Source: Butyriboletus loyo (lineage: Eukaryota > Basidiomycota > Agaricomycetes > Boletales > Boletaceae). Taken from it: a stretch of DNA of 64,000 nt. A model generated the notes under the pieces. That model saw only the letters and a program-made list of their open reading frames with translations. It was not told where the DNA came from and did not search any database. Positions within the stretch are counted from its first letter, which is position 1. Every line of letters starts with the position of its first letter. The DNA is taken from contig JBBPSI010000010.1 in the NCBI GenBank assembly GCA_038093515.1, positions 186,001 to 250,000 on the forward strand. The letters are read 5' to 3'. The position numbers and the translations under genes are program-made. Shown piece by piece: positions 26,207-41,403 of the stretch.

Positions 26207-29200
26207 ATGAGCAAAGCTTCCACTGCATCAGCAAAGACTCCAGCGCAGCTCCCTTCGCAATCAGCTTGGGCAAAGGGCCCTCCGCCAAATAGCAACTCTT
26301 CAGCTCCCTCGCCGCGTTCTCAGTCTCCTGCTCCGTCCCATGCACCATCTCCGATAACAGCTTCTCACTCCCGCCGTCCAAGTGCGTTAGGCCAGGGCGT
26401 GCCAATAAAAGAAGGCGTCAGTGTTCCGCGTAGTAACGTGGGCTCTGCCAGACAAGGTACAGGTACATCGTCATGTTCATCCTTCTATTTATCATTTCTG
26501 TCCTTATTCTTCGTCCCAGGTTCCGCCGTCACTTTTGGTTCCATAGACGACCTTTCTCCTCCCTTGTCATCTTCACCTGCAGCCGCACCCGTGGTCAAAA
26601 CCGAAAGCGTAAAGTCCTTCGGATCTGTACCTGCTACCCCATCCAACCATGTCAATGGTAAACTTCCCGCTTCTGTTTTGACCTCCGGCTCTTCGAAGCT
26701 CCCTGCTCGGCCCGCCGCCTCATCCACGTCAACACCCTCGAACATGTCGTCGCCCTCCACCACGCCCGCCACGTCCTCATCAACGTCCTCTGCTCCGACA
26801 AAATTCGCACTTGGCAAAGCCGACATTGCCAAACTTTTCCAGGGTTCTTCTTCCGCACCTTCACAACCGTCATCAGACACTTCCTCTCCTTCAACTCGAT
26901 CGTCTAATTTGCCACCACATCATCAGCCCTCTTCGTCTGGACAGCACCCCCCACAACCTCCTGCGCAGCCCTCCCAACTAGGTGCGCACCAATTTGCGCC
27001 GTTTGTACCCGGGATGCGACCACAGCAGGGCGCTGGCGGCCCGCGCTCACCGGCCTTCCCTCGCGCCGTGCCCAACGGCACTGGTGCCCCTCCTCGACCC
27101 ATGGCGGGCCCTGGTGGACCCGGTGGCCCTCCGATTCCCGCTAGTCCGCGACTTGCTCCCCATCCCCCTCATCCACATCAACCTCCCCCTACAGGGGTTC
27201 CTGCTCAACAGGTTTCTCTCCAGCCTATGCCTTGGGCGCCTTATTACGTACGTATTTCCTTATCAAAATGTGGCAATTTATCTTTTTTTCCTAAATGCGT
27301 GTATCACTAGTATTCAGTAGATGCTTTTGTGCAACCTCCCTCGCCTTGGTTCTATCACCCCATGCACCAACAACCCCATCCTCCACATACGCCTCACCCA
27401 CCTGCGCCAGCCACACAGGGACCACCTCATTCCGCCATGCCCTTATCACCGCGAAATCAGCCTCCTAGTTTACCCCCTGGCACCCCCACCTTGGCGCACG
27501 CCATTCCGCACCCACCACATACGCCCCAACCACCGCCCTCCCACACGCATCAACCTCCGAGCGGTATGAGTATTTCATCGCCTCCTCCCACACCATCAAC
27601 TAGCACTGCCCCTTCTGCCCGTGCCCTCAACACCAATGCCTCCACGTTCGTTCCCACTTCGCGTGCACCTAAAGCAATTGTGATAAAGAATGAAGACGGT
27701 ATGGAGGTTAATCTAGAGGCGTTGAAGAAACATAGTCCGCAGCCGCCAACTGTACCGATTCCGCCGCCATCGCCGGTTACGACCAGTCGCCGTACTGCAT
27801 CGGTTAGAATTGAGAGTGAGGAGTCAAAAAGAAAGAGGGAGGAGCAGGCACGATTAGAGCAAGAGAAGAAGGAAGCTGAGGAACGAGCGAAGAAAGATGG
27901 AGAGGAACGAAAACGGAAGGAAGAAGAGGAAGCCAAGCGGAAGGAGGAGGAAGCCAAGCGAAAAGAGGAGGAAGAGAGGGAGAAGGAACGGTTACGGAAG
28001 GAAGAGGAAGAAAAGGAACGGTTACGACTTGAGGAGGAGGAGCGGAAACGCGAGGAGGATGCCAGACTTGAGGAAGAGCGGATGAAGGCTGAGAAAGAGA
28101 AGGAGGAGCAAGAGCGTGCAGATCGGGAAGCTGAAGAACAGCGACAGCAAGAAGCGAGGAGAAGCGAGGAGGCCGAGTTAGAGGCCGAGGAAACTCAGGA
28201 CACTGTCAAATCTCCCTCTGAAGAATCCAGGGAGCCAGAGGAAGGAGAGGTCATCGAAAACGGAGAAATTGTGGAGATACAGGTCAACGGTGATTTCACT
28301 AGCAAACCCCAGAGGGCTCCGAAGGAAGCCCTGCGGATAGATACGTCATCCATGCCCCCACCTTTAGAGATCCCCAGACGACGCCCTGGTCCTCTTGACA
28401 TTAACGCAGCAAAGAGGGATTTATCCGCTCCTCCTCTCTCTGCGCTGGCCACGGCAAGAAATATCGAGAGACTTCAGGACATTGAATATCCGGAAGGGGT
28501 CAGAAGCCCCAGGGAGGACCTCAACAAGGACGCGAAAGATGGCAAATTTAGGTATCTAAACATTGTTCGTGCTCTACTTTATCGATTTCCTCATCTTCCT
28601 ACAGATACGATCGCGACTTCCTTATGCAGTTTATGCAGCTCTGCAAAGAGAAGCCACTTAACCTTCCATCATTGGACATCCTGGGTATCGAACCCGTTGA
28701 CCAGTCAACCTTCAATATGACTCGTGGCGGTTCAGGACGCCATCGCCAGCCAGCAAGTGCGATGGTACCGACTGCTCGTCAAAGTTCAGTTGGACTCGGG
28801 ATTTCTGGCGGGTTCGGCACCAAGCCAGGTGCTGCGCCGAGTCCTTTCTCTATGGGGCAGTTCTCCACCACGACAGCCAAACTTACGAGTGAAGAACGTT
28901 ACATGATCTCAACAACGGGCACGCGTTCCGCTTCAGTCACCGGTGGTCCTGCCGCTTTGCAGTTTGGCCGTCCTGCTATGACGCGGACAGCATCTCAGGG
29001 TGGTCCAGGTGGGCACCCTATGGTCAGCAACCGTACTCGAAGTAAGCGTGGTGAGAGGCGTGCGGACGGGAACAAGGTTGCTCATCCTCAACAAGGCGAG
29101 GGATTAGGCTTCGGTGCCCCAGGTTCTGTGCCTATCCTAGGGGCTGCCTTCGAGCCCGTTGCTCCACTCGAGATGTCAGCAAACCGTTGGGTTGCTGCGA

Positions 29201-31091
29201 GTACCCTTCGCAAGCCCGCTGCCGATACCGACTCTCCCGAACTCGTGGATCGTAAAGTCAGATCTCACCTCAACAAACTTACCATGGAGAAATTCGACCC
29301 TATCTCCGATCAGATCATTGCTTGGGCGAACAAGAGCGAGAACGAGAAGGATGGCCGGACGCTTATCCAGGTTATCAGGCTCGTGTTCGAGAAGGCGACG
29401 GACGAGGCCGCATGGAGTGAGATGTATGCGCGCCTCTGCCGGAAGATGATGGAGACGATCAGTCCCGAAGTTCAGGATGATGGTATTAGGAACACGGAGG
29501 GCAAGCCTATTGCTGGTGGTCAGCTCTTCCGCAAATATCTTCTCAATCGCTGTCAAGAAGATTTTGAGCGTGGCTGGGTTGCCAAGGAGACGACGGCCGC
29601 GGCCGCTGCGGCCAAGGCCTCCGACGATCAAGCTATCAAGGCTGCTAACGAGAGGAAGGGCGACGAGAGCGAACTTTATTCGGAGGAGTATTACGCTGCC
29701 CAAAAGGCAAAACGTCAAGGTCTTGGTCTCATCAAGTTCATTGGTGAACTCTTCAAGCTCCAGATGCTCACGGAGCGTATCATGCACGAGTGTGTCAAGA
29801 AGCTCCTGGGCAACGTCGAGAATCCAGAAGAGGAAGAGATTGAGAGTTTGTGTCAGTTGCTGAAAACAGTCGGTCAGCTACTTGATGTCCCCAAGGCAAG
29901 AGCACATATGGACGTGTACTTCACGCGGATGAAGGAGCTTTGTAAGAGCCTAAACGTCAGCCCGCGTATGCAGTTCATGCTTCAGGTAACGACTGTTTAT
30001 CGTGTGTTGTTTGCGCTCCTCCTTATCTACTTCCTCCCGATAGGATGTGATCGAGCTCCGTGATCGGAAATGGGTGGCTCGCGGCGCTGTCATTGCTCCC
30101 ACCACTATATCTGCTGTTCATGAAGCTGTACGTATTTGGGATCTGAGTTTCTTGTGGTAGCAAGTGGCTAAATTGGGTACAGGTCGCGAAGGAGAAGGCA
30201 GCCGCAGAGGCCCAACGTCAGCTCAGCATGTCGAGAGGCGGATCAAGACGTGGTGGTGACCGAACTACAGAATCTGGACCTGACGGATGGACTACAGCTG
30301 GAGGTTCGGTCCCTCGGCCACAACCAAAAGCAGGCGACTTGTCACAATTTGGTAAGATCAGCAAAGCCTCGTCGATGGTCATGGGTCCCAGTAGCGTCTT
30401 CACCAAGAAGGACAACAAGCGCGATTCGTTATCTCGGACGAGCTCGAGTTCTAATATGTTCTCCATGCTCAGCCAAAATCCTGAATTGGCGGTCGACGCT
30501 ACCGCTAAATCCAGCCGACCACCCAGCCGGAAGCCTTCAGTGGACCTCGGACAGACTGGAGTGCCAGAACCTCCCCAAAGGAAGAAGCTGCAACTGCTGC
30601 CCCGAACAAAGCCCTCTCCCGCCGAGGAAAACCCTGCTGCTACTTCTGAGGACGAGTCCGAGGCACCTGCTCAGATGTCAGAAGCCAATGCGAAGAAAAA
30701 GATTGATGAGGACGTCAAGGAGTTCTTCGCCGTCCGGAGTATGGACGAAGCAGATGTCTACTTCCCGAATCTTCCCGAGGAACACCGCTTCCGCCTTGTC
30801 GACAAGTTGGTGGGTTCCGCTTTGGAGAGCAAGGAGGCCGACGCAGTGCTCGTTTCGGAATTCTTTGCCCAAGTAGCATCAAAGGGCCAGTGTTCTCCCG
30901 AAATATTCGAAGCCGGGTTTATGCCAATGGCGGAGTTCTTGGATGATATTGCCATCGACGCTCCGAACGCGTTCAAGTTTATGGCAATCATGCTCAAGGG
31001 TGCAGGTTTCGACAAGGATGAGGAAACGCTAGGCCGGATTGCTGGGAAATCGATGGAAGGTGACAGGTTACTCCAGCTCGTGTCATCGTGA
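26207..31091 (+). CDS. Translation initiation factor eIF4G (eIF-4F large subunit)
   Basis: Scaffold of the cap-binding complex, linking eIF4E, eIF4A, poly(A)-binding protein and, through eIF3, the ribosome. Six exons give about 1,530 residues; introns lie near 26458-26520, 27249-27310, 28552-28604, 29986-30043 and 30128-30182. The first about 500 residues are low-complexity Ser/Pro/His-rich. A strongly charged Glu/Lys/Arg coiled-coil-like segment follows (27820-28190). The eIF4E-binding motif YxxxxL-phi is YDRDFLM at 28606-28626. The MIF4G domain starts near ANRWVA (29180), with LVDRKVRSHLNKLT, ISDQIIAWANKS, FEKATDEAAWSEMYARLC, LLNRCQEDFERGW and GLIKFIGELFKLQMLTERIMHECV. The MA3 domain occupies the last exon (EDVKEFFAVRSMDEADVYF to LLQLVSS). 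This is the parent of the duplicated blocks at 36.2 and 39-41 kb. Confidence 0.95.
28606..28626 (+). other. eIF4E-binding motif of eIF4G
   Basis: Codons for YDRDFLM match the canonical YxxxxL-phi eIF4E-binding consensus. The motif sits just after the third intron and upstream of MIF4G, the normal eIF4G order. It is outside the block that was duplicated to 39-41 kb. Confidence 0.85.
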
Positions 31092-32066
31092 CGAACATAT
31101 TTTCTCACCATGCATCACATTCGCATATTTTTTCTTCTTTTTGGGCCTTGCACGATTGCAGTCTGCTTTTTCATTCTTCTCCTTCCCCGTTAATATCATT
31201 CGTAGGGTGACACACGTTTCGTTCTCGGACGCTGTTTGCGTGTTGCGGATGTTTTGCACTAATATCTGTACATCGCACGGTTCCACTTTGTTTTCCTACA
31301 TTTACAGCATAGTTTACAGCGGATGGTACATCGAGTACTTCGTACACCAATACGCTCAAATGACGAATGGATATGCCTAAGTCGAGAAATGAATGGCATC
31401 TGATCATCCCTTGATAACCTTGGTCACCTAACGCTTGACATTTTATCGTGCTCCTCGCCATTCTAGCCTACATTTTTATGCCAGAGTTCCGATATTGAAA
31501 AGCCTGCCAACATGGTGGAGCTACCATCACAACATTGCTGATTCACTTGCCTTGCTATCAGATGCGGGAAGAACTTGAGCAGCGTCCAGGCACTCGTTCC
31601 CATAGTGGAAAATGTCTACCGCAACGCAAATCTCAAAAGGCAAAACAACACATTCTCGACACTCTAGAAACGCATAAAACTTTATGAAGCATTTGAACCC
31701 AAAATCGAGATCGGTCATGGAAGTCACGGACTACCAAGGAGTGAAGTATTGCGAAATCTTGCCAAGATTGAATCACCGACGTGTGACCCGAACGTGACAA
31801 AATCAAGGCCCCTAAAACATCTCTTGTTTTCACAGCATAAAAAAGAAAAACAGAAAAATGCAGAAAAATACGCAGTTTACTGTACTAGACGTACGGAGTA
31901 GTCCGTGTGGTTGTGGAAGCTGTGGAAGGGATCTAATTGTTTTTTTGTACTAACGCAGGCACGATAGTGTGTGGAGGGAGTGACACGCACATGGTGATGG
32001 TTATTCTTATATTCTTATCATAGAGATGGCTTAGAAAGTCGTCCTCCCCGCCAGGAGGCACAGACC
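31092..32066. other. eIF4G 3' UTR and intergenic
   Basis: The first about 330 bases are the eIF4G 3' flank, a diverged version of which recurs at 40892-41228. The rest is A/T-rich with no gene seen. Confidence 0.5.
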
Positions 32067-35000: not shown

Positions 35001-36011
35001 ATTAGCGTATGTGCGTGTACCTTTGCTCGTCGAGCTTCGGACGACCATTGACACTGACATGCATCAAGACCCGATAGCGATGAGGTGAGTCGCATTGTTC
35101 TCGGGGTAGAGAATTTGTTGAGATGCATCCAGCGTGCGTTCTACAAACGTGTATGAAGAACAGTCACTTGGGATATTTCACTCGGACGATCAGTTGTCTG
35201 CCGCGGAGCAAGCGTTTAACACTGATGGGTCACGAATGGCCATGTGGGGTCGATATCTAGCGATGCACGCACGTTACCAGCTTTCGTTCGGTACGTTTCC
35301 ATTTATCTCACTCGTTGAATTTCTCTAAAATTTCTGTTGGAGATATGTGGTGGCTTGCACTAGCCCTTTTCCTCGTCTGCATAATAGAGGTTTGTACAGG
35401 ATGATTCGTGATTCGCTGTGCCTCAATGTCTGAATATTCTAACTTCAGAAGGATAACTTGATTAATCCAGAGATTCAAGGCTGGTTCAACGAATTCACGA
35501 TCAGTACGTGAATAGTATTTGCTGCAAACACCATTAATCAAAGCCCTTATTCGCCAGTCTTTGAGTTAGTTTCAGCATACGGATCTGTTGGACTTAGCCT
35601 CGGCATGCCAAACGTACGTGCGGTTCTGGGTTCACGATGAGTCTATCTCACCCATAGACCCAGCAAAACTATTCTCTCTCCGGCGCCTTCCGACCATTAT
35701 CGAAGCTCATTATCTGTCTGGTCATGATACGTGGTCGTCATCGCGGTCTGCCCGTAGCAATCGACAGAGCAATCGTGCTCCCGTATGAGTTTGAAAGAGC
35801 AGAAGATGATCCAGACCCACCGCCGAGAGTTGACGAACGGCGGTCCAGCCGGTATAGTGCCGGCGCCGCCCCCCATCCTGTCGGCGGATCTTTAGACGAC
35901 ATCAAACATGGGCATACAGTCATGGAGGGAGAGCGGGTAGGTAGAGACGATGTTGGTGACAAGCACGGAAGTCGAACGGGAGACGAGGAGATGGAAGGGA
36001 AAACTGGATAG
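32067..36011 (+). CDS. TRK-family high-affinity potassium transporter
   Basis: Plasma-membrane K+ uptake protein with the fungal TRK layout. The first unit reads RRHLNFFRIHLVFL, a TFTPLIFSVILYASNG helix, and the pore segment SAVTVCGLGTVNLSQLTPWQ. It is followed by LLFIQMCVGSP, VVVSWFMVLIRR and FFAKKFEYII. A long hydrophilic loop (about 32.7-33.9 kb) is typical of fungal TRK. The second half has EYRALNALLWLV, FSLFQVVSSYTNTGFSLVD, YPMIFFMVFLILAGNTGF, LLDHPRRCFVYLFPSHQTW, LDIGNPEIESIPLGTRFAAGLLQ and DMWWLALALFLVCIIE. A last pore unit reads FELVSAYGSVGLSLGMPN, with YSLSGAFRPLSKLIICLVMIRGRHRGLP before a polar tail. At least a dozen short introns are needed. The start could be 32067 or the in-frame ATG near 32190. 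Its last exon has a degenerate copy at 36.74-37.13 kb. Confidence 0.88.
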
Positions 36012-36043
36012 TAGTCAGTGGTTACAAGGACGTCACTGCCGGA

Positions 36044-36197: not shown

Positions 36198-37130
36198 ATG
36201 AGCGAGAACGAAAAGGATGGCCGGACGCTCATCCAGGTCATCAGGCTTGTGTTCGAAAAAATGACGGACGAGGCTGCATGGAGTGAGGTGTATGCGCGCC
36301 TCTGCCGAAAGATGATTGAAACGATCTGTTCCGAAGTTCGCGATGATGTAGTATCAGGAACTCGGAGGGCAAGCCTACTTATCGTTGTCAAGAAGACTTT
36401 GAGCGTGGCTGGATTGCTAAGGAGATGATGGCTGCGGCCAAGGCCTCCGATGATCAAACTCTGAAGGCTGCCAACAAGAGGAAGGGCGACGGGAGCGAGC
36501 TTTATTCGGACGCTGAGTATTATGCTGCCCAAAAGGCGAACGTCAAGGTCTCGGTCTTATCAAGTTCATCGGGGAACTCTTCAGGTTCCAGATGCCACTC
36601 ATGGAACACATCATGCACGAGTGCCCCAAGAAGTTGAGCAACTTCGGGAATCCAGAAGAGGAAGAATGATTGAGCTCCATGATCGGAAATGGGTGGCTCG
36701 CAGCGCTGTCAATATTGTCCCCACCACTATATCGGTTCACGATGTGTCTCTCATCCAAGGGCATAGCAAAACAATCCTTTTTCCGGGACATTCCGACCAC
36801 TATCGAGGCCCGATGTCTGTCTAGTCAGGATACGTGGTCGTCATCGCGGTCTGCCGGTGGTAATCGACATCGACAGAGCAATCGTGCTCCCGTATGAGCG
36901 GAAGATGATTCAGGCCCACCGTCAAGAATGATGGATGAACAATGGTCCGCTGATATAACATCGTCTCCGTCTCCCATCCTGGATTGAGATATACAGACCA
37001 CGTCACATGGGCATAAGATCGCGGAGAAGGGGTGGGCGGGTAAAGATGAGGGCGCTGGAGGGCGTGGAAGTTGAGCGGGGAGACGAAATGGAAGGAAAAC
37101 AGTAGTCACGAGAGCGTCCAGACTGGCTTG
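36198..37130 (+). pseudogene. Chimeric pseudogene: eIF4G MIF4G scrap joined to TRK tail scrap
   Basis: From about 36200 to 36735 the DNA is a degraded copy of the eIF4G MIF4G region (ENEKDGRTLIQVIRLVFEK, EVYARLCRKM, SGNSSGSR in a shifted frame). It has several internal deletions and frame changes. One deletion joins the GAATCCAGAAGAGGAAGAA stretch directly to the exon that begins with ATTGAGCTCCATGATCGG. From about 36738 the match switches to the last exon of the TRK gene (compare 35640-36030), including the TACGTGGTCGTCATCGCGGT stretch and the polar tail, again with indels. No single frame spans it. Its AATATT insertion after GCTGTC is shared with the fusion gene at 39.9 kb and not with the parent. 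Confidence 0.75.
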
Positions 37131-37623
37131 TGGAAAAGGATTCGTTAACGGCATTGGACGTGGTGTTCGAACCTGCGGCTACCACGACAGTCCGACTGGG
37201 ACATGAACATTCTCCTATGGATAAATCAAACAGCGAAATGCATGATCAAAAGTATGTCACTGTAACAGACACAATTCGGAAAATGGGTATGATACCACGG
37301 ACGCATGCATCGTTCCCCTTTTGTTCTGCTTGAACTTGCACCCGAGACTCCCAGTGTCATTGCGCGGTCATAGGAGAATTCTCAAGATCTCACCGTCCGT
37401 CAGCTGGCAACTTTGCGACCCTGTAGACCAGTCCAAGCCAGCCTCCAAGCCAACTCTTGCCGTCTACGTGCATCGAATTTCGGGTGACATTGTGCTGATG
37501 AAGGGTTGGTTGAGTTTGATCAGCCCATCACCGCACTTGCCCCCGACCGTATTCGACTGTCCACGCGGCCAGGTCATTGACCCTGTGACCTCGCTCTGAA
37601 TGTCCCCACCGGAATCGTAAATC
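37131..37623. other. Upstream region of the kinase fusion gene
   Basis: About 490 bases between the chimeric pseudogene and the first clear kinase exon. Short open frames (37130-37333, 37321-37599) could be 5' exons of the fusion gene, but no kinase-family motif is visible in them. Confidence 0.35.
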
Positions 37624-40600
37624 TTGTTCTGTTACTTTGATAATACACTGGTCGCTGACACGCAGGTGTTTAGCAGGTCTGAGCCTGGGCAACCACCACA
37701 TCTCTCCTCGACGATCGTCTCAGACCTGACAGACAAGATCAGACGACCAGACGATCAGTACCATGAAGCGGGCAGTTTAAGTGACGTGTTCCGGTGTCGG
37801 TATATGGCCGTCGATGGTGCGGAGGTTCGAGCCGCTGTCCTCCCTACATCTTCTTTTATTCTAAGACGGCTTCCCCCTCAGCCCCTTTGGATCCGGGTTT
37901 CCGTAAAAGCATTTCGATTTAGTTTCATAGTCGACGAACATGAAGGAGCCAAACGAGATGGGGGAAAGGTCTCGCGAGTACGTTTTTTCACTCGACTTAC
38001 CCACACGACCAGCGACCTTGATGTTCGATCTTAATCTGTAGATGATACGCCGACAGCTCGGTATCTGGAAGAGGCTCTGTCATCGTAATATCGTTCCATT
38101 CCTAGGGATCGCGTATGGGTTTGGAAGAGAAGGAAGCGCGTCCTTGGTGTCGGTGTGGATGCACTACGGTACATTGCACACGTTTTTAGAGAGGCATGAC
38201 AGTCGGCTCGCGGTTGCACACCGCCTACAGTTGGTGAGTAAATGACAAAGCACTCTCGAGTATTGCTCTCTGACATCCTCTTGGATGTTGCGTTTCAGTT
38301 ATTGGATATTGCCAATGGACTCCAGTACTGTGGGTTTGGGGTTTCATTTACGCCAGAGTGCTCATGTGACTCGTTATGAACAGTGCACTCATTTCCTCTT
38401 GTCCACGGAGACCTTTCAAGCGTACGTCCTGACATATAGATTTCGTCTTGCTCGCTGAGCTACCGACAGAATAACGTGCTCCTCGATCACAATTGCAATG
38501 CTCGCCTGGCCGATTTCGGTTGTGCTTCCTTGGTAAGAGAGCTTCCGGACGGATTCAGTTACCTCAAGATGTCCGGTGTGAGACCCGGTACCCTGCGATG
38601 GGCCGCACCTGAACACTTCTTGGACAACGAAAGGGACACAAAGCATACAATCAAAAGCGACATTTACTCATTCGGGAACATGGCTCTTCTGGTATGTGCT
38701 TGGCACTGTAATCCTCCCTCTGACTGTGTACAATTGCGAACCTTCTTTTGTTTCTCGACAGGTACTGTCTGGAAAATACCCGTGGTCCGAGGTCCAACAC
38801 GATGACGTTGTCATATCCAATTTGTCTCAGGGTCACAAGCCTGATCAGCCACTCGCGCGACCGATTGACGATCGGCATTGGGCATTTATCGAAAGGTGCT
38901 GGTCGTCGATATCGGAGAGGCCGCTTGCCGAAGACGTGGTGTCCTCACTTCAACAATTCCTGGGTACCTACCCACCCCCAGCGCGCCTTCGTGACCTCCT
39001 CAAGATGTATGCAAATCGTTGGGTTGCTACGAGCACTCTTCGCAAGCCAGGTGTTGCCGACATCGACTCTCCCAAACTCGTAGATCGCAAAGTCAGGTCC
39101 CTCCTCAACAAGCTCACCACGGAGAAGTTCGACTCCATCTCCGACCAGATCATTACATGGGCGAACAAGAGCGAGGACGAAAAGGATGGCCGGACGCTTA
39201 TTCAGGTTATCAGGCTCGTGTTCGAGAAGACGACGGACGAGGCCGTATGGAGTGAGTTGTATGCGCGCCTCTGCCGGAAGATGATGGAGACGATCAGTCC
39301 CGAAGTTCAGGATGTCGGTATCAGGAACTCGGAGGGCAAGCCTATTGCTGGTGGTCAGCTCTTCAGAAAGTATCTTCTCAATCGCTGTCAAGAAGACTTC
39401 GAGCGTGGATGGGTTGCCAAGGAGACGACGACCGCGGACAAGGCCTCCGATGATCAAACTCTGAAGGCTGCTAACGAGAGGAAAGGGGATGAGAGCAAAC
39501 TCTATTCCGACGAGTATTACGCTGCACAAAAGGCAAAACGTCAAGGTCTCGGTCTCATCAAGTTCATTGGTGAACTCTGCAAACTCCAGATGCTCACGGA
39601 ACGTATCATACACGAGTGTGTCAAGAAGCTTCTGGGAAACCTCGACAATCCAAATATTGAGAGTTTATGTCTGTTGCTGAAAACAGTTGGTCAGTTACTC
39701 GATGTCCCCAAGGCAAGAGTACATATGGACGCATACTTCGCGCGGATGAAGGAGCATTACCAGAGCCCAAACATCAGCCCGCGTATGCAGTTCATGCTTC
39801 AGGTAACGACTGTTCATCGTGCGTTCATCGTGCTCTTCCTTACCTGCTTTCTCTCAATAGGATGTGATCGAGCTCCGTGATCGGAAATGGGTGGCTCGTG
39901 GGGCTGTCAATATTGCCCCCACCACTGTAATCGCTGTTCGTGAAGCTGTACGTGTTTAGGATGTGTTTCTTGTGGTAGCAAGTGTCTAAATTGGGTACAG
40001 GTCCAGAATCACCAACGTCAACTTAGCAGGTCGAGAGGCGGATCGAGACGTAGTGGTGACCGAACCGCAGAATCTGGACTTGACGGATGGACTACAGCTG
40101 ATGGTTCGGTCCCTCGGCCACAACCAAAAGCAGGCGACTTGTCACAATTTGGTAAGATCAGCGAAGCCTCATCGATGGTCATGGGTCCCAGTAGCGTCTT
40201 CACCAAGAAGGACAACAAGCGCGATTCGTTATCTCGGACGAGCTCGAGTTCTAATATGTTCTCCATGCTCAGCCAAAATCCTGAATTGGCGGTCGACGCT
40301 ACCGCTAAATCCAGCCGACCACCCAGCCGGAAGCCTTCAGTGGACCTCGGACAGACTGGAGTGCCAGAACCTCCCCAAAGGAAGAAGCTGCAACTGCTGC
40401 CCCGAACAAAGCCCTCTCCCGCCGAGGAAAACCCTGCTGCTACTTCTGAGGACGAGTCCGAGGCACCTGCTCAGATGTCAGAAGCTAATGCGAAGAAAAA
40501 GATTGATGAGGACGTCAAGGAGTTCTTCGCCGTCCGGAGTATGGACGAAGCAGATGTCTACTTCCCGAATCTTCCCGAGGAACACCGCTTCCGCCTTGTC

Positions 40601-40891
40601 GACAAGTTGGTGGGTTCCGCTTTGGAGAGCAAGGAGGCCGACGCAGTGCTCGTTTCGGAATTCTTTGCCCAAGTAGCATCAAAGGGCCAGTGTTCTCTCG
40701 AAATATTTGAAGCCGGGTTTATGCCAATGGCGGAGTTCTTGGATGATATTGCCATCGACGCTCCGAACGCGTTCAAGTTTATGGCAATCATGCTCAAGGG
40801 TGCAGGTTTCGACAAGGATGAGGAAACGCTAGGCCGGATTGCTGGGAAATCGATGGATGGTGACAGGTTACTCCAGCTTGTGTCATCGTGA
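37624..40891 (+). CDS. Protein kinase fused in frame to eIF4G MIF4G-MA3 module
   Basis: A chimeric gene of about 930 codons. The N-terminal half is a complete TKL-type protein kinase: beta-3 lysine in VSVKAFRF, catalytic loop LVHGDLSSNNVLLD, DFG in ARLADFGCASL, GTLRWAAPEHF, SDIYSFGNM and the closing CWSSISERPLAEDVVSSLQQFL. The glycine loop is weak (AGSLSDVFRC). Introns in the kinase part are short and canonical (near 37825-37878, 37981-38040, 38235-38298, 38331-38381, 38420-38470, 38692-38761). One exon from about 38762 runs without a stop from the kinase C-lobe into ANRWVATSTLRKPG and the whole MIF4G domain. Introns 39803-39860 and 39948-40000 sit exactly where the parent eIF4G has them. The MA3 exon ends at 40891. 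The N-terminal low-complexity region and eIF4E-binding motif of eIF4G are absent. The start is uncertain: no good ATG is seen near 37624 and 5' exons may exist upstream. Confidence 0.82.
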
Positions 40892-41403
40892 CGAACATGT
40901 CTTCTCACCATGCATGTATCCACCCTCACCCTCACATCATGTTCTCTTTTCTTTTGGGCCTTGTACGGTTGCGGTCTGCTTTTTCATTCGTAGGGTGACA
41001 CACGTTTCGCTCTCGGACGTTGTTTGCATGATCTGGATATCCTGTACTACCAATATCTGTACATCGCATTGGCTTCACTTCGGTTCGTTTTGAATGTTTT
41101 CCTCCATTTACAGCAAGGGCTATAGCGGACGGTACATCGAGTACTTCCCACGCCAATATACCCAGACGACGTTGAACTGCTACGCCTAAGCTGAGAAACT
41201 CGGAGCGGCGTCTAATCAACCCTTGATAACGGAATCTTTACTCTTTAAAAATGATGAACTCGAGCCCCCAATAAAGGTAGTATTATATATTGGTGGTCAG
41301 GAATCGGTTGCCCGGGTCTTTTGCGTTGAGCGGCACAGGGAGAGTGCGGGAGTCTGTTGGGTCATGAGAAGATTCAAGTTTGCCTGTCAGTCAGTGCAAA
41401 CTA
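40892..41403. other. Duplicated eIF4G 3' flank
   Basis: From the stop to about 41228 the sequence is alignable with 31092-31420 (ACCATGCAT, GGTCTGCTTTTTCATTC, GGTGACACACGTTTCG, ATATCTGTACATCGCA, CCCTTGATAAC). It has many substitutions and indels and marks the right end of the duplicated block. No gene is seen. Confidence 0.7.

What the first reader, a model, noticed from the sequence alone, without database searches (positions are those of the whole stretch)
37624..40891. A protein kinase domain fused in frame to the MIF4G-MA3 half of eIF4G
Seen directly: one exon from about 38762 runs without a stop from the kinase C-lobe (VLSGKYPW ... CWSSISERP ... LQQFLGTYPPP) into ANRWVATSTLRKPG and the full MIF4G domain. 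The next two introns are at the same places as in the parent eIF4G and the MA3 exon is intact. The kinase has its lysine, HGD, DFG and APE motifs. Established: MIF4G binds eIF4A and eIF3, and MA3 is a regulatory eIF4A-binding domain. Inference: a kinase physically tethered to the translation initiation machinery, able to phosphorylate factors at the scaffold or to compete with eIF4G. I know of no described protein with this domain order.
Basis: partly seen in the sequence, partly recalled or inferred. Interest (0 to 1): 0.88.

Follow-up and report, generated by a model that had tools for sequence, protein, structure and literature searches.

The report
Kinase-like domain fused to half eIF4G
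In this bolete-like mushroom, a kinase gene has become joined in frame to a duplicated half of the translation factor eIF4G, and similar joinings turn up in several other mushroom lineages, which suggests that coupling these two parts may be useful to the fungus.

Summary
One exon (38762-39802) reads without a stop from a kinase C-lobe, through the kinase family's LRDLL tail, into the MIF4G domain of a duplicated eIF4G. The modelled gene (37600-40891, ten exons) encodes 920 aa: kinase, MIF4G, MA3, with no eIF4E-binding segment. It is a duplication chimera: the parent eIF4G lies 10 kb away and a broken third piece just upstream.

The eIF4G half looks constrained: all five coding indels are multiples of three, and changes concentrate at third positions. 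Part of that constraint may predate the fusion. The MA3 exon was recently homogenised with the parent.

First, of 71 positions invariant in 13 chosen sister kinases, the fusion changes three, all in the ATP-binding N-lobe and including the helix-C glutamate, so it may be a pseudokinase. Second, 8 of 295 database proteins in hand also join a kinase or kinase fragment to MIF4G (Paxillus, Mycena, Marasmius, Paramarasmius, Lyophyllum, environmental DNA); a tree needs six changes.

My paper searches showed no description of this architecture. Best guess: a cap-blind scaffold, binding eIF4A and eIF3, controlled through the kinase domain. Expression and function are unproven.

The parts
37600..37616 (+). 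exon 1 of the fusion gene (ATG, MSPPES)
   Evidence: the Tylopilus felleus relative P0123 also begins MSPPE
37677..37824 (+). exon 2: N-terminal leader, glycine loop GSLSDV (last Gly changed to Ser)
   Evidence: the 57-base intron after it (37825-37881) is in frame and may be retained
37882..37977 (+). exon 3: kinase strand with the ATP-binding lysine (VSVK)
38042..38691 (+). exons 4-7 (38042-38233, 38299-38329, 38384-38421, 38470-38691): helix C (Glu changed to Gln), HGD loop, DFG, APE
38762..39802 (+). exon 8, the fused exon: kinase C-lobe end, LRDLL tail, junction, most of MIF4G
   Evidence: Pfam MIF4G 168.5 bits
38987..39005 (+). junction: kinase tail ...RLRDLLK | MYANRW... of eIF4G
   Evidence: kinase homology ends about 38987, eIF4G homology starts 38999; 3 of 5 unfused family copies examined (L012, L013, L016) have the LRDLL tail; L018 has ICDLL and L022 FCGLL
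39861..39947 (+). exon 9, end of MIF4G
40001..40891 (+). exon 10: linker and MA3 domain, stop 40889-40891
   Evidence: Pfam MA3 25.3 bits
40172..40898 (+). tract nearly identical to parent 30372-31098 (five differences), read as gene conversion
28606..31091 (+). parent eIF4G 3' part (YDRDFLM motif, MIF4G, MA3); the gene begins further upstream, near 26.2 kb by eye
36200..36731 (+). third, frame-broken eIF4G (MIF4G) fragment

Best explanation
This is a real chimeric gene. A truncated duplicate of eIF4G, starting just before MIF4G, lies directly behind the coding sequence of a Boletales TKL-type kinase, so one spliced mRNA would encode kinase-like domain, linker of about 40 residues, MIF4G and MA3. 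Shown: the frame, splice sites, domains, constraint on the eIF4G half, and parallel fusions in other species. Inferred: the protein binds eIF4A (and probably eIF3) through MIF4G and MA3 but cannot be recruited through eIF4E, so it acts like a DAP5-type, cap-blind or competing scaffold. The kinase-like part, probably weak or inactive as an enzyme, serves as the regulated or sensing half and brings the kinase gene's expression pattern.
For: The frame is open across ten modelled exons with GT-AG introns. Coding indels against the parent are 3, 9, 9, 3 and 18 bases (5 of 5 multiples of three); intron and 3' flank indels are mixed in length, and the fragment carries frameshifts. Third-position changes are 60 of 107 over 361 codons, p = 1e-6. 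Differences avoid conserved sites: 12 of 174 invariant against 26 of 118 variable columns, p = 0.0003. Pairwise dN/dS is 0.16, 0.13 and 0.36 in the first three 100-column blocks. Sixty-eight of 71 kinase columns invariant in 13 chosen relatives are kept. Pfam finds MIF4G, kinase and MA3 but no eIF_4G1, and there is no YxxxxL-hydrophobic motif. Parallel fusions: 8 of 295 proteins in hand, with 6 changes on a 54-row tree.
Against: There is no transcript or protein evidence. The copy shares a 9-base deletion with the broken fragment, so part of its constraint may predate the fusion, and the fragment itself shows a third-position excess (21 of 42). The linker block has dN/dS 0.62 on few changes. 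The copy has changed 12 of 173 otherwise invariant MIF4G columns (the parent 0 of 178), so constraint is relaxed. If only a fifth of the synonymous changes lay on the copy's branch, neutrality would not be excluded. Comparison with kinase relics gave no significant constraint on the kinase half. The ATG at 39005 could start an unfused MIF4G-MA3 protein.
Confidence: 0.45

Rival explanations
1. A young chimera without function: a duplication happened to land in frame behind a kinase gene, and both halves are drifting towards decay, as the C255/C371 kinase relics and the 36.2 kb eIF4G fragment already have.
For: Relaxed MIF4G (12 of 173 invariant columns changed), lost N-lobe residues, broken sister pieces nearby and elsewhere, no significant constraint on the kinase half against the relics, and constraint possibly inherited from before the fusion.
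Against: All five coding indels are in frame, all ten modelled exons are open, and third-position excess is strong. Environmental proteins P0241/P0244 carry the same kind of fusion with a kinase fragment, and stand as one clade with this copy in the MIF4G tree, though with weak support 75/81.
Confidence: 0.3
2. Two products: the kinase ends by early polyadenylation, and a separate MIF4G-MA3 protein starts at the ATG at 39005, so no fused protein is made.
For: An ATG with A at -3 lies exactly at the junction. Several Boletales have short MIF4G-MA3 protein models, such as P0004, P0022 and P0027.
Against: No stop or intron separates the halves, and the junction lies inside a 1041-base exon. P0241, P0242 and P0244 run on across the join.
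Confidence: 0.15
3. Bait receptor: the kinase family joins many domains (WD40, HET, GATA, zinc cluster, NPHP3_N), and here the eIF4G half is a decoy for non-self factors that attack translation, in the manner of plant tandem-kinase and NLR integrated domains.
For: At least 23 of 120 listed kinase hits carry WD40 (PF00400, my count); HET, GATA, Zn_clus and NPHP3_N partners; two-kinase proteins P0121/P0122; repeated fusions.
Against: No functional data for this kinase family were found. Kinases are listed as NLR effector domains in the passages I saw, but no eIF4G bait appeared in my searches; the search joining tandem kinase, NLR and fungal terms gave 0 papers. The plant parallel rests on a search listing and recall.
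Confidence: 0.08
4. Assembly artefact.
For: No reads were available, and the MA3 exon is almost identical in both copies.
Against: The junction lies inside a 324 kb contig; the fused copy differs from the parent by roughly 10-20% on both sides of the identical tract; other species show such joins.
Confidence: 0.02

Closest known systems
DAP5 / eIF4G2 (animals)
   Same: keeps the middle and C-terminal part (MIF4G, MA3), lacks eIF4E and PABP sites (PMC9726905, passages seen)
   Different: DAP5 has a C-terminal W2 domain and no kinase; here there is no W2 and a kinase-like domain stands in front
eIF4G itself (parent, 3' part at 28606-31091)
   Same: MIF4G, intron positions, MA3, stop
   Different: the N-terminal half with the eIF4E-binding motif is replaced by a kinase-like domain
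Expanded Agaricomycete TKL-like kinases (compare FslK, PMC3937382; abstract, passages and section 9 read)
   Same: PF07714-type kinase, expanded in mushroom fungi, kinase motifs largely kept
   Different: FslK membership was not tested; this copy lost the helix-C Glu and carries eIF4G
Kinase-MIF4G proteins in databases: P0073 Mycena rebaudengoi, P0257 Marasmius sp., P0015 Paxillus ammoniavirescens, P0253 Paramarasmius palmivorus, P0241/P0242/P0244 environmental
   Same: kinase or kinase fragment followed by MIF4G (and MA3 where the model reaches it)
   Different: other kinase subfamilies, linkers and junctions in most; P0241/P0244 are the nearest by MIF4G tree

Membership tests
eIF4G | MIF4G domain | tested here: met
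   PF02854, 168.5 bits, residues 357-602
eIF4G | MA3 domain | tested here: met
   PF02847, 25.3 bits against cut-off 23.2
eIF4G | eIF4E-binding region | tested here: not met
   no PF12152 and no YxxxxL-hydrophobic motif. The parent exon translation begins YDRDFLM; the parent piece I scanned, which starts at that motif, gave no PF12152 either, while full relatives P0006 and P0010 do
DAP5/eIF4G2 | MIF4G and MA3 without an eIF4E site | tested here: met
DAP5/eIF4G2 | C-terminal W2 domain | tested here: not met
   no such Pfam hit at E 0.001; the MA3 match ends at residue 883 of 920
DAP5/eIF4G2 | binds eIF4A and drives translation of particular mRNAs | not testable with these tools
   needs binding and reporter assays
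Active protein kinase | VAIK lysine, catalytic Asp, DFG, APE | tested here: met
   VSVK, HGD, DFG, APE in the model; motif names recalled
Active protein kinase | helix-C glutamate and full glycine loop | tested here: not met
   E92Q, F40L, G41S; the CTR1 alignment places Q at the Glu
FslK kinases | phylogenetic placement with published FslK members | not tested
   their sequences were not fetched
Orthologous fusion shared by species | one clade with P0241/P0244 in the MIF4G tree | tested here: inconclusive
   in the best tree, support 75/81; the later kinase pieces of P0241/P0244 do not group with the window kinase
Orthologous fusion shared by species | one clade with the Paxillus fusion P0015 | tested here: not met
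   AU p = 0.0005 and 0.0025 with P0241/P0244 included

The most novel reading that the evidence does not exclude
Mushroom fungi repeatedly built the same device: a kinase or pseudokinase module, in Boletales from a family that also joins WD40, HET and DNA-binding domains, tied to the eIF4A/eIF3-binding half of eIF4G. It would serve as a switchable translation brake or as a bait for factors that attack eIF4G in non-self or viral conflict.
Probability: 0.2. Interest if true: 0.85.

Novelty: new variant of a known kind. Interest (0 to 1): 0.62.

Why it matters
eIF4G is the central scaffold of cap-dependent translation, and kinases usually reach it as separate proteins (general knowledge). A gene that ties a kinase fold to the eIF4A-binding half, and that apparently arose several times, would be a natural experiment in rewiring translation control. 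It would also be a concrete test of whether recurrent gene fusion marks selection or merely unstable loci. The Boletales eIF4G paralogues and the lost N-lobe residues give direct, cheap experiments.

Tried and rejected
A single ancestral kinase-eIF4G fusion for all Boletales was tested and rejected: the window copy with P0015, p = 0.0005; window, P0241 and P0244 with P0242, p = 0.0018, and with P0015, p = 0.0025. The last two groups were named after a tree had been seen, which weakens those p values. Gene conversion towards each lineage's own eIF4G could mimic separate origins; P0015 shares eight derived residues with the P. involutus paralogue P0021 (no kinase found) and one with the window copy.

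Constraint on the kinase half was sought against the C255 and C371 relics. Third-position shares were 70 of 183 and 80 of 227, not significant; relic decay may dominate. The evidence for that half is only the intact frame and the 68 of 71 kept columns. That set of 13 relatives left out P0121's second kinase, which was in the earlier alignment and has Thr at the helix-C Glu and Ser at the loop Gly, so the losses are not unique to the fusion. Each of the 13, tested the same way, departs at 0 to 8 such columns, so the number three is ordinary; its location is the point. The broken eIF4G fragment also shows a third-position excess (21 of 42), which weakens the argument that constraint followed the fusion. 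Lineage-specific dN/dS could not be fixed because no relative's DNA was available.

A first gene model without a start codon was replaced by the MSPPES model.

The first tree used 48 of the 120 proteins listed plus the two window copies, leaving out 4 second matches. The second dropped 14 of those 50 rows (Suillus, Pisolithus and other divergent or partial rows) and added 18. Only the best 120 of 890, 206 and 360 hits were listed, so fusion counts are lower bounds and are biased towards kinase partners by the queries. P0073, P0248, P0253 and P0257 are predicted gene models and could be merged neighbours. P0241, P0242 and P0244 seem to be single open frames, since they carry what reads like translated introns (my reading).

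Ten paper searches listed no title or abstract describing a kinase-MIF4G fusion; three of the listings were capped (12 of 15, 6 of 35, 10 of 20). Of four papers opened I saw the abstract, passages and one section of PMC3937382, and passages of PMC9726905, PMC9815663 and PMC4986451.

Full report
WHAT IS THERE. The window lies on a 324.6 kb contig of a 30.3 Mb, 420-contig genome. The parent eIF4G's MIF4G is 94.6-96.0% identical to those of Chiua, Imleria and three Boletus records, so the organism is a bolete-like fungus (Boletales, probably Boletaceae; inference). The 432-codon open frame 38582-39880 joins a kinase C-lobe to a MIF4G domain. The full model has ten exons from 37600 to 40891, introns GT-AG, and 920 residues. 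Exon 1 encodes MSPPES; the Tylopilus felleus relative P0123 also begins MSPPE, followed by what reads like a translated intron. Pfam gives a kinase (118.6 bits, matched from profile position 46 on), MIF4G (168.5 bits) and MA3 (25.3 bits), and no eIF4E-binding domain.

HOW IT AROSE. Kinase homology ends at about 38987 and eIF4G homology starts at 38999. Of 5 unfused kinase copies examined in the same genome, 3 have the same LRDLL tail (L012, L013, L016), L018 reads ICDLL and L022 FCGLL, and none continues like eIF4G. The eIF4G part matches 29167-31418, so the duplicate runs from just before MIF4G to about 330 bases past the stop. A whole-genome search with the MIF4G-MA3 part found matches only on this contig: the parent, this copy and a broken fragment at 36200-36731 (counts there are lower bounds). 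Fragment and copy share a 9-base deletion and the string AAACTCTG, which the parent lacks. This suggests that they descend from one duplicate, although the deletion lies in an alanine run and could recur.

GENE CONVERSION. Identity to the parent is 78-97% per 60-base bin through MIF4G, 97-100% in the bins from 30300 to 31079, and falls again after the stop. The tract is about equally like other boletes in both copies, so its direction is not resolved. An assembly copy error in this 0.7 kb is possible, but it would not affect the junction.

IS IT CONSTRAINED. Indels between parent and copy in coding sequence are 3, 9, 9, 3 and 18 bases; outside it they are 2, 9, 4, 25, 3, 1, 14 and others. Third-position differences are 60 of 107 over 361 codons. 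NG86 dN/dS is 0.163, 0.134, 0.36 and 0.616 in successive 100-column blocks; the last rests on 5.5 synonymous and 11.5 other changes in the linker. Using the fragment to polarise, copy-lineage changes fall 6, 5 and 17 at positions 1, 2 and 3, parent-lineage changes 4, 0 and 8. With half to two thirds of the synonymous changes on the copy branch and all other changes charged to it, its own ratio would be about 0.35-0.47; with a fifth it would be 1.19. I read this as relaxed, not neutral. The copy changed 12 of 173 columns invariant in 25 reference eIF4Gs, the parent 0 of 178; other paralogues and fusions changed 6 to 22. Some of this history may precede the fusion.

THE KINASE HALF. Against 13 chosen family members, 68 of 71 invariant columns are kept; the three changed are F40L and G41S in the glycine loop and E92Q, the helix-C glutamate, as the CTR1 alignment also shows. 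The 13 relatives, tested likewise, depart at 0-8 columns each, and P0121's second kinase, not in that set, has also lost the Glu and the loop Gly. The lysine, HGD, DFG and APE are present. A kinase fold kept while its ATP-positioning residues change is what a pseudokinase would look like; weak activity is not excluded. The Marasmius fusion P0257 has NFG in place of DFG, whereas P0073 and P0248 keep DFG.

NOT ALONE. Of 295 proteins gathered by three searches, 8 have both a kinase match and MIF4G. P0073 (Mycena rebaudengoi) and P0257 (Marasmius sp.) have kinase-MIF4G-MA3 by Pfam; P0248 (Lyophyllum atratum) has the reverse order, eIF4G then kinase. P0015 (Paxillus ammoniavirescens) and P0253 (Paramarasmius palmivorus) have a kinase tail, MIF4G and MA3, and P0241, P0242 and P0244 (environmental) have a kinase C-lobe piece and MIF4G; in these five the kinase part is a fragment found by phmmer and does not reach a Pfam kinase cut-off. 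On a MIF4G tree of 54 rows, 9 of them fused, the trait needs 6 changes. The window copy, P0241 and P0244 may be one event (support 75/81, not strong); P0242 and P0015 are separate by AU tests. A quick tree of kinase C-lobes shows the window copy with Tylopilus and the first piece of P0241 (99), while the second piece of P0241 and P0244 fall elsewhere; P0242 falls in a group of 15 rows (97) with Imleria, Boletus and other WD40-bearing and related kinases; P0015, with a quarter of the columns, lies near Melanogaster, Gyrodon and Paxillus kinases. The Boletales kinase family also joins WD40 (at least 23 of 120 listed rows, my count of the printed domain lists), HET, GATA, zinc-cluster and NPHP3_N domains. 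One dynamin-MIF4G protein, P0265, shows that eIF4G pieces also join other partners. So both partners are promiscuous, and recurrence alone does not prove selection.

HOW IT MAY WORK. From the DAP5 passages: an eIF4G relative without eIF4E and PABP sites has the parts that bind eIF4A and eIF3 and serves particular mRNAs. Inferred: this protein binds eIF4A and eIF3 but not eIF4E, under the kinase gene's promoter, and either slows ordinary initiation by competition or serves particular mRNAs. The kinase-like part would sense or dock rather than phosphorylate. Bait for non-self factors is the boldest reading and is untested.

NOVELTY. The searches listed in Tried and rejected showed no description of this architecture. 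Database records with it exist but, where named, are called hypothetical, armadillo-type or ARM repeat proteins. I rate it a new variant of a known kind: a chimeric gene of known domains in an undescribed, recurrent order.

Noticed in passing
window 36200-36731: A third, frame-broken eIF4G piece lies between two copies of a 70% identical direct repeat (35629-36017 and 36734-37108), just upstream of the fusion gene.
   Followed up: partly
window 30372-31098 and 40172-40898: Gene conversion-like tract limited to the last (MA3) exon and a few bases past the stop, between the parent eIF4G and the fused copy.
   Followed up: partly
L003, L004 (contigs C255, C371): Decayed kinase relics, the nearest DNA matches to the fused kinase; L003 begins with reverse-transcriptase-like coding sequence (my reading, no call), and L004 carries further kinase pieces, recalling two-kinase proteins such as P0122 and P0123.
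   Followed up: partly
P0010, P0018, P0260 (Paxillus involutus): Three eIF4G paralogues are on contigs of the same length (818445), suggesting a tandem array; several Boletales have more than one eIF4G-like protein.
   Followed up: partly
P0134, P0138, P0150, P0196, P0189: Members of the same Boletales kinase family are joined to GATA, Zn2Cys6, HET and NPHP3_N domains in predicted proteins, a very promiscuous kinase module.
   Followed up: partly
P0009 and P0243 (Gyrodon lividus); P0015 and P0122 (Paxillus ammoniavirescens): The eIF4G or fusion gene and a related kinase lie on contigs of equal length (828269; 1215937), so local linkage may favour repeated fusion.
   Followed up: no
P0265 (Hermanssonia centrifuga): Dynamin GTPase joined to MIF4G in one predicted protein.
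   Followed up: partly
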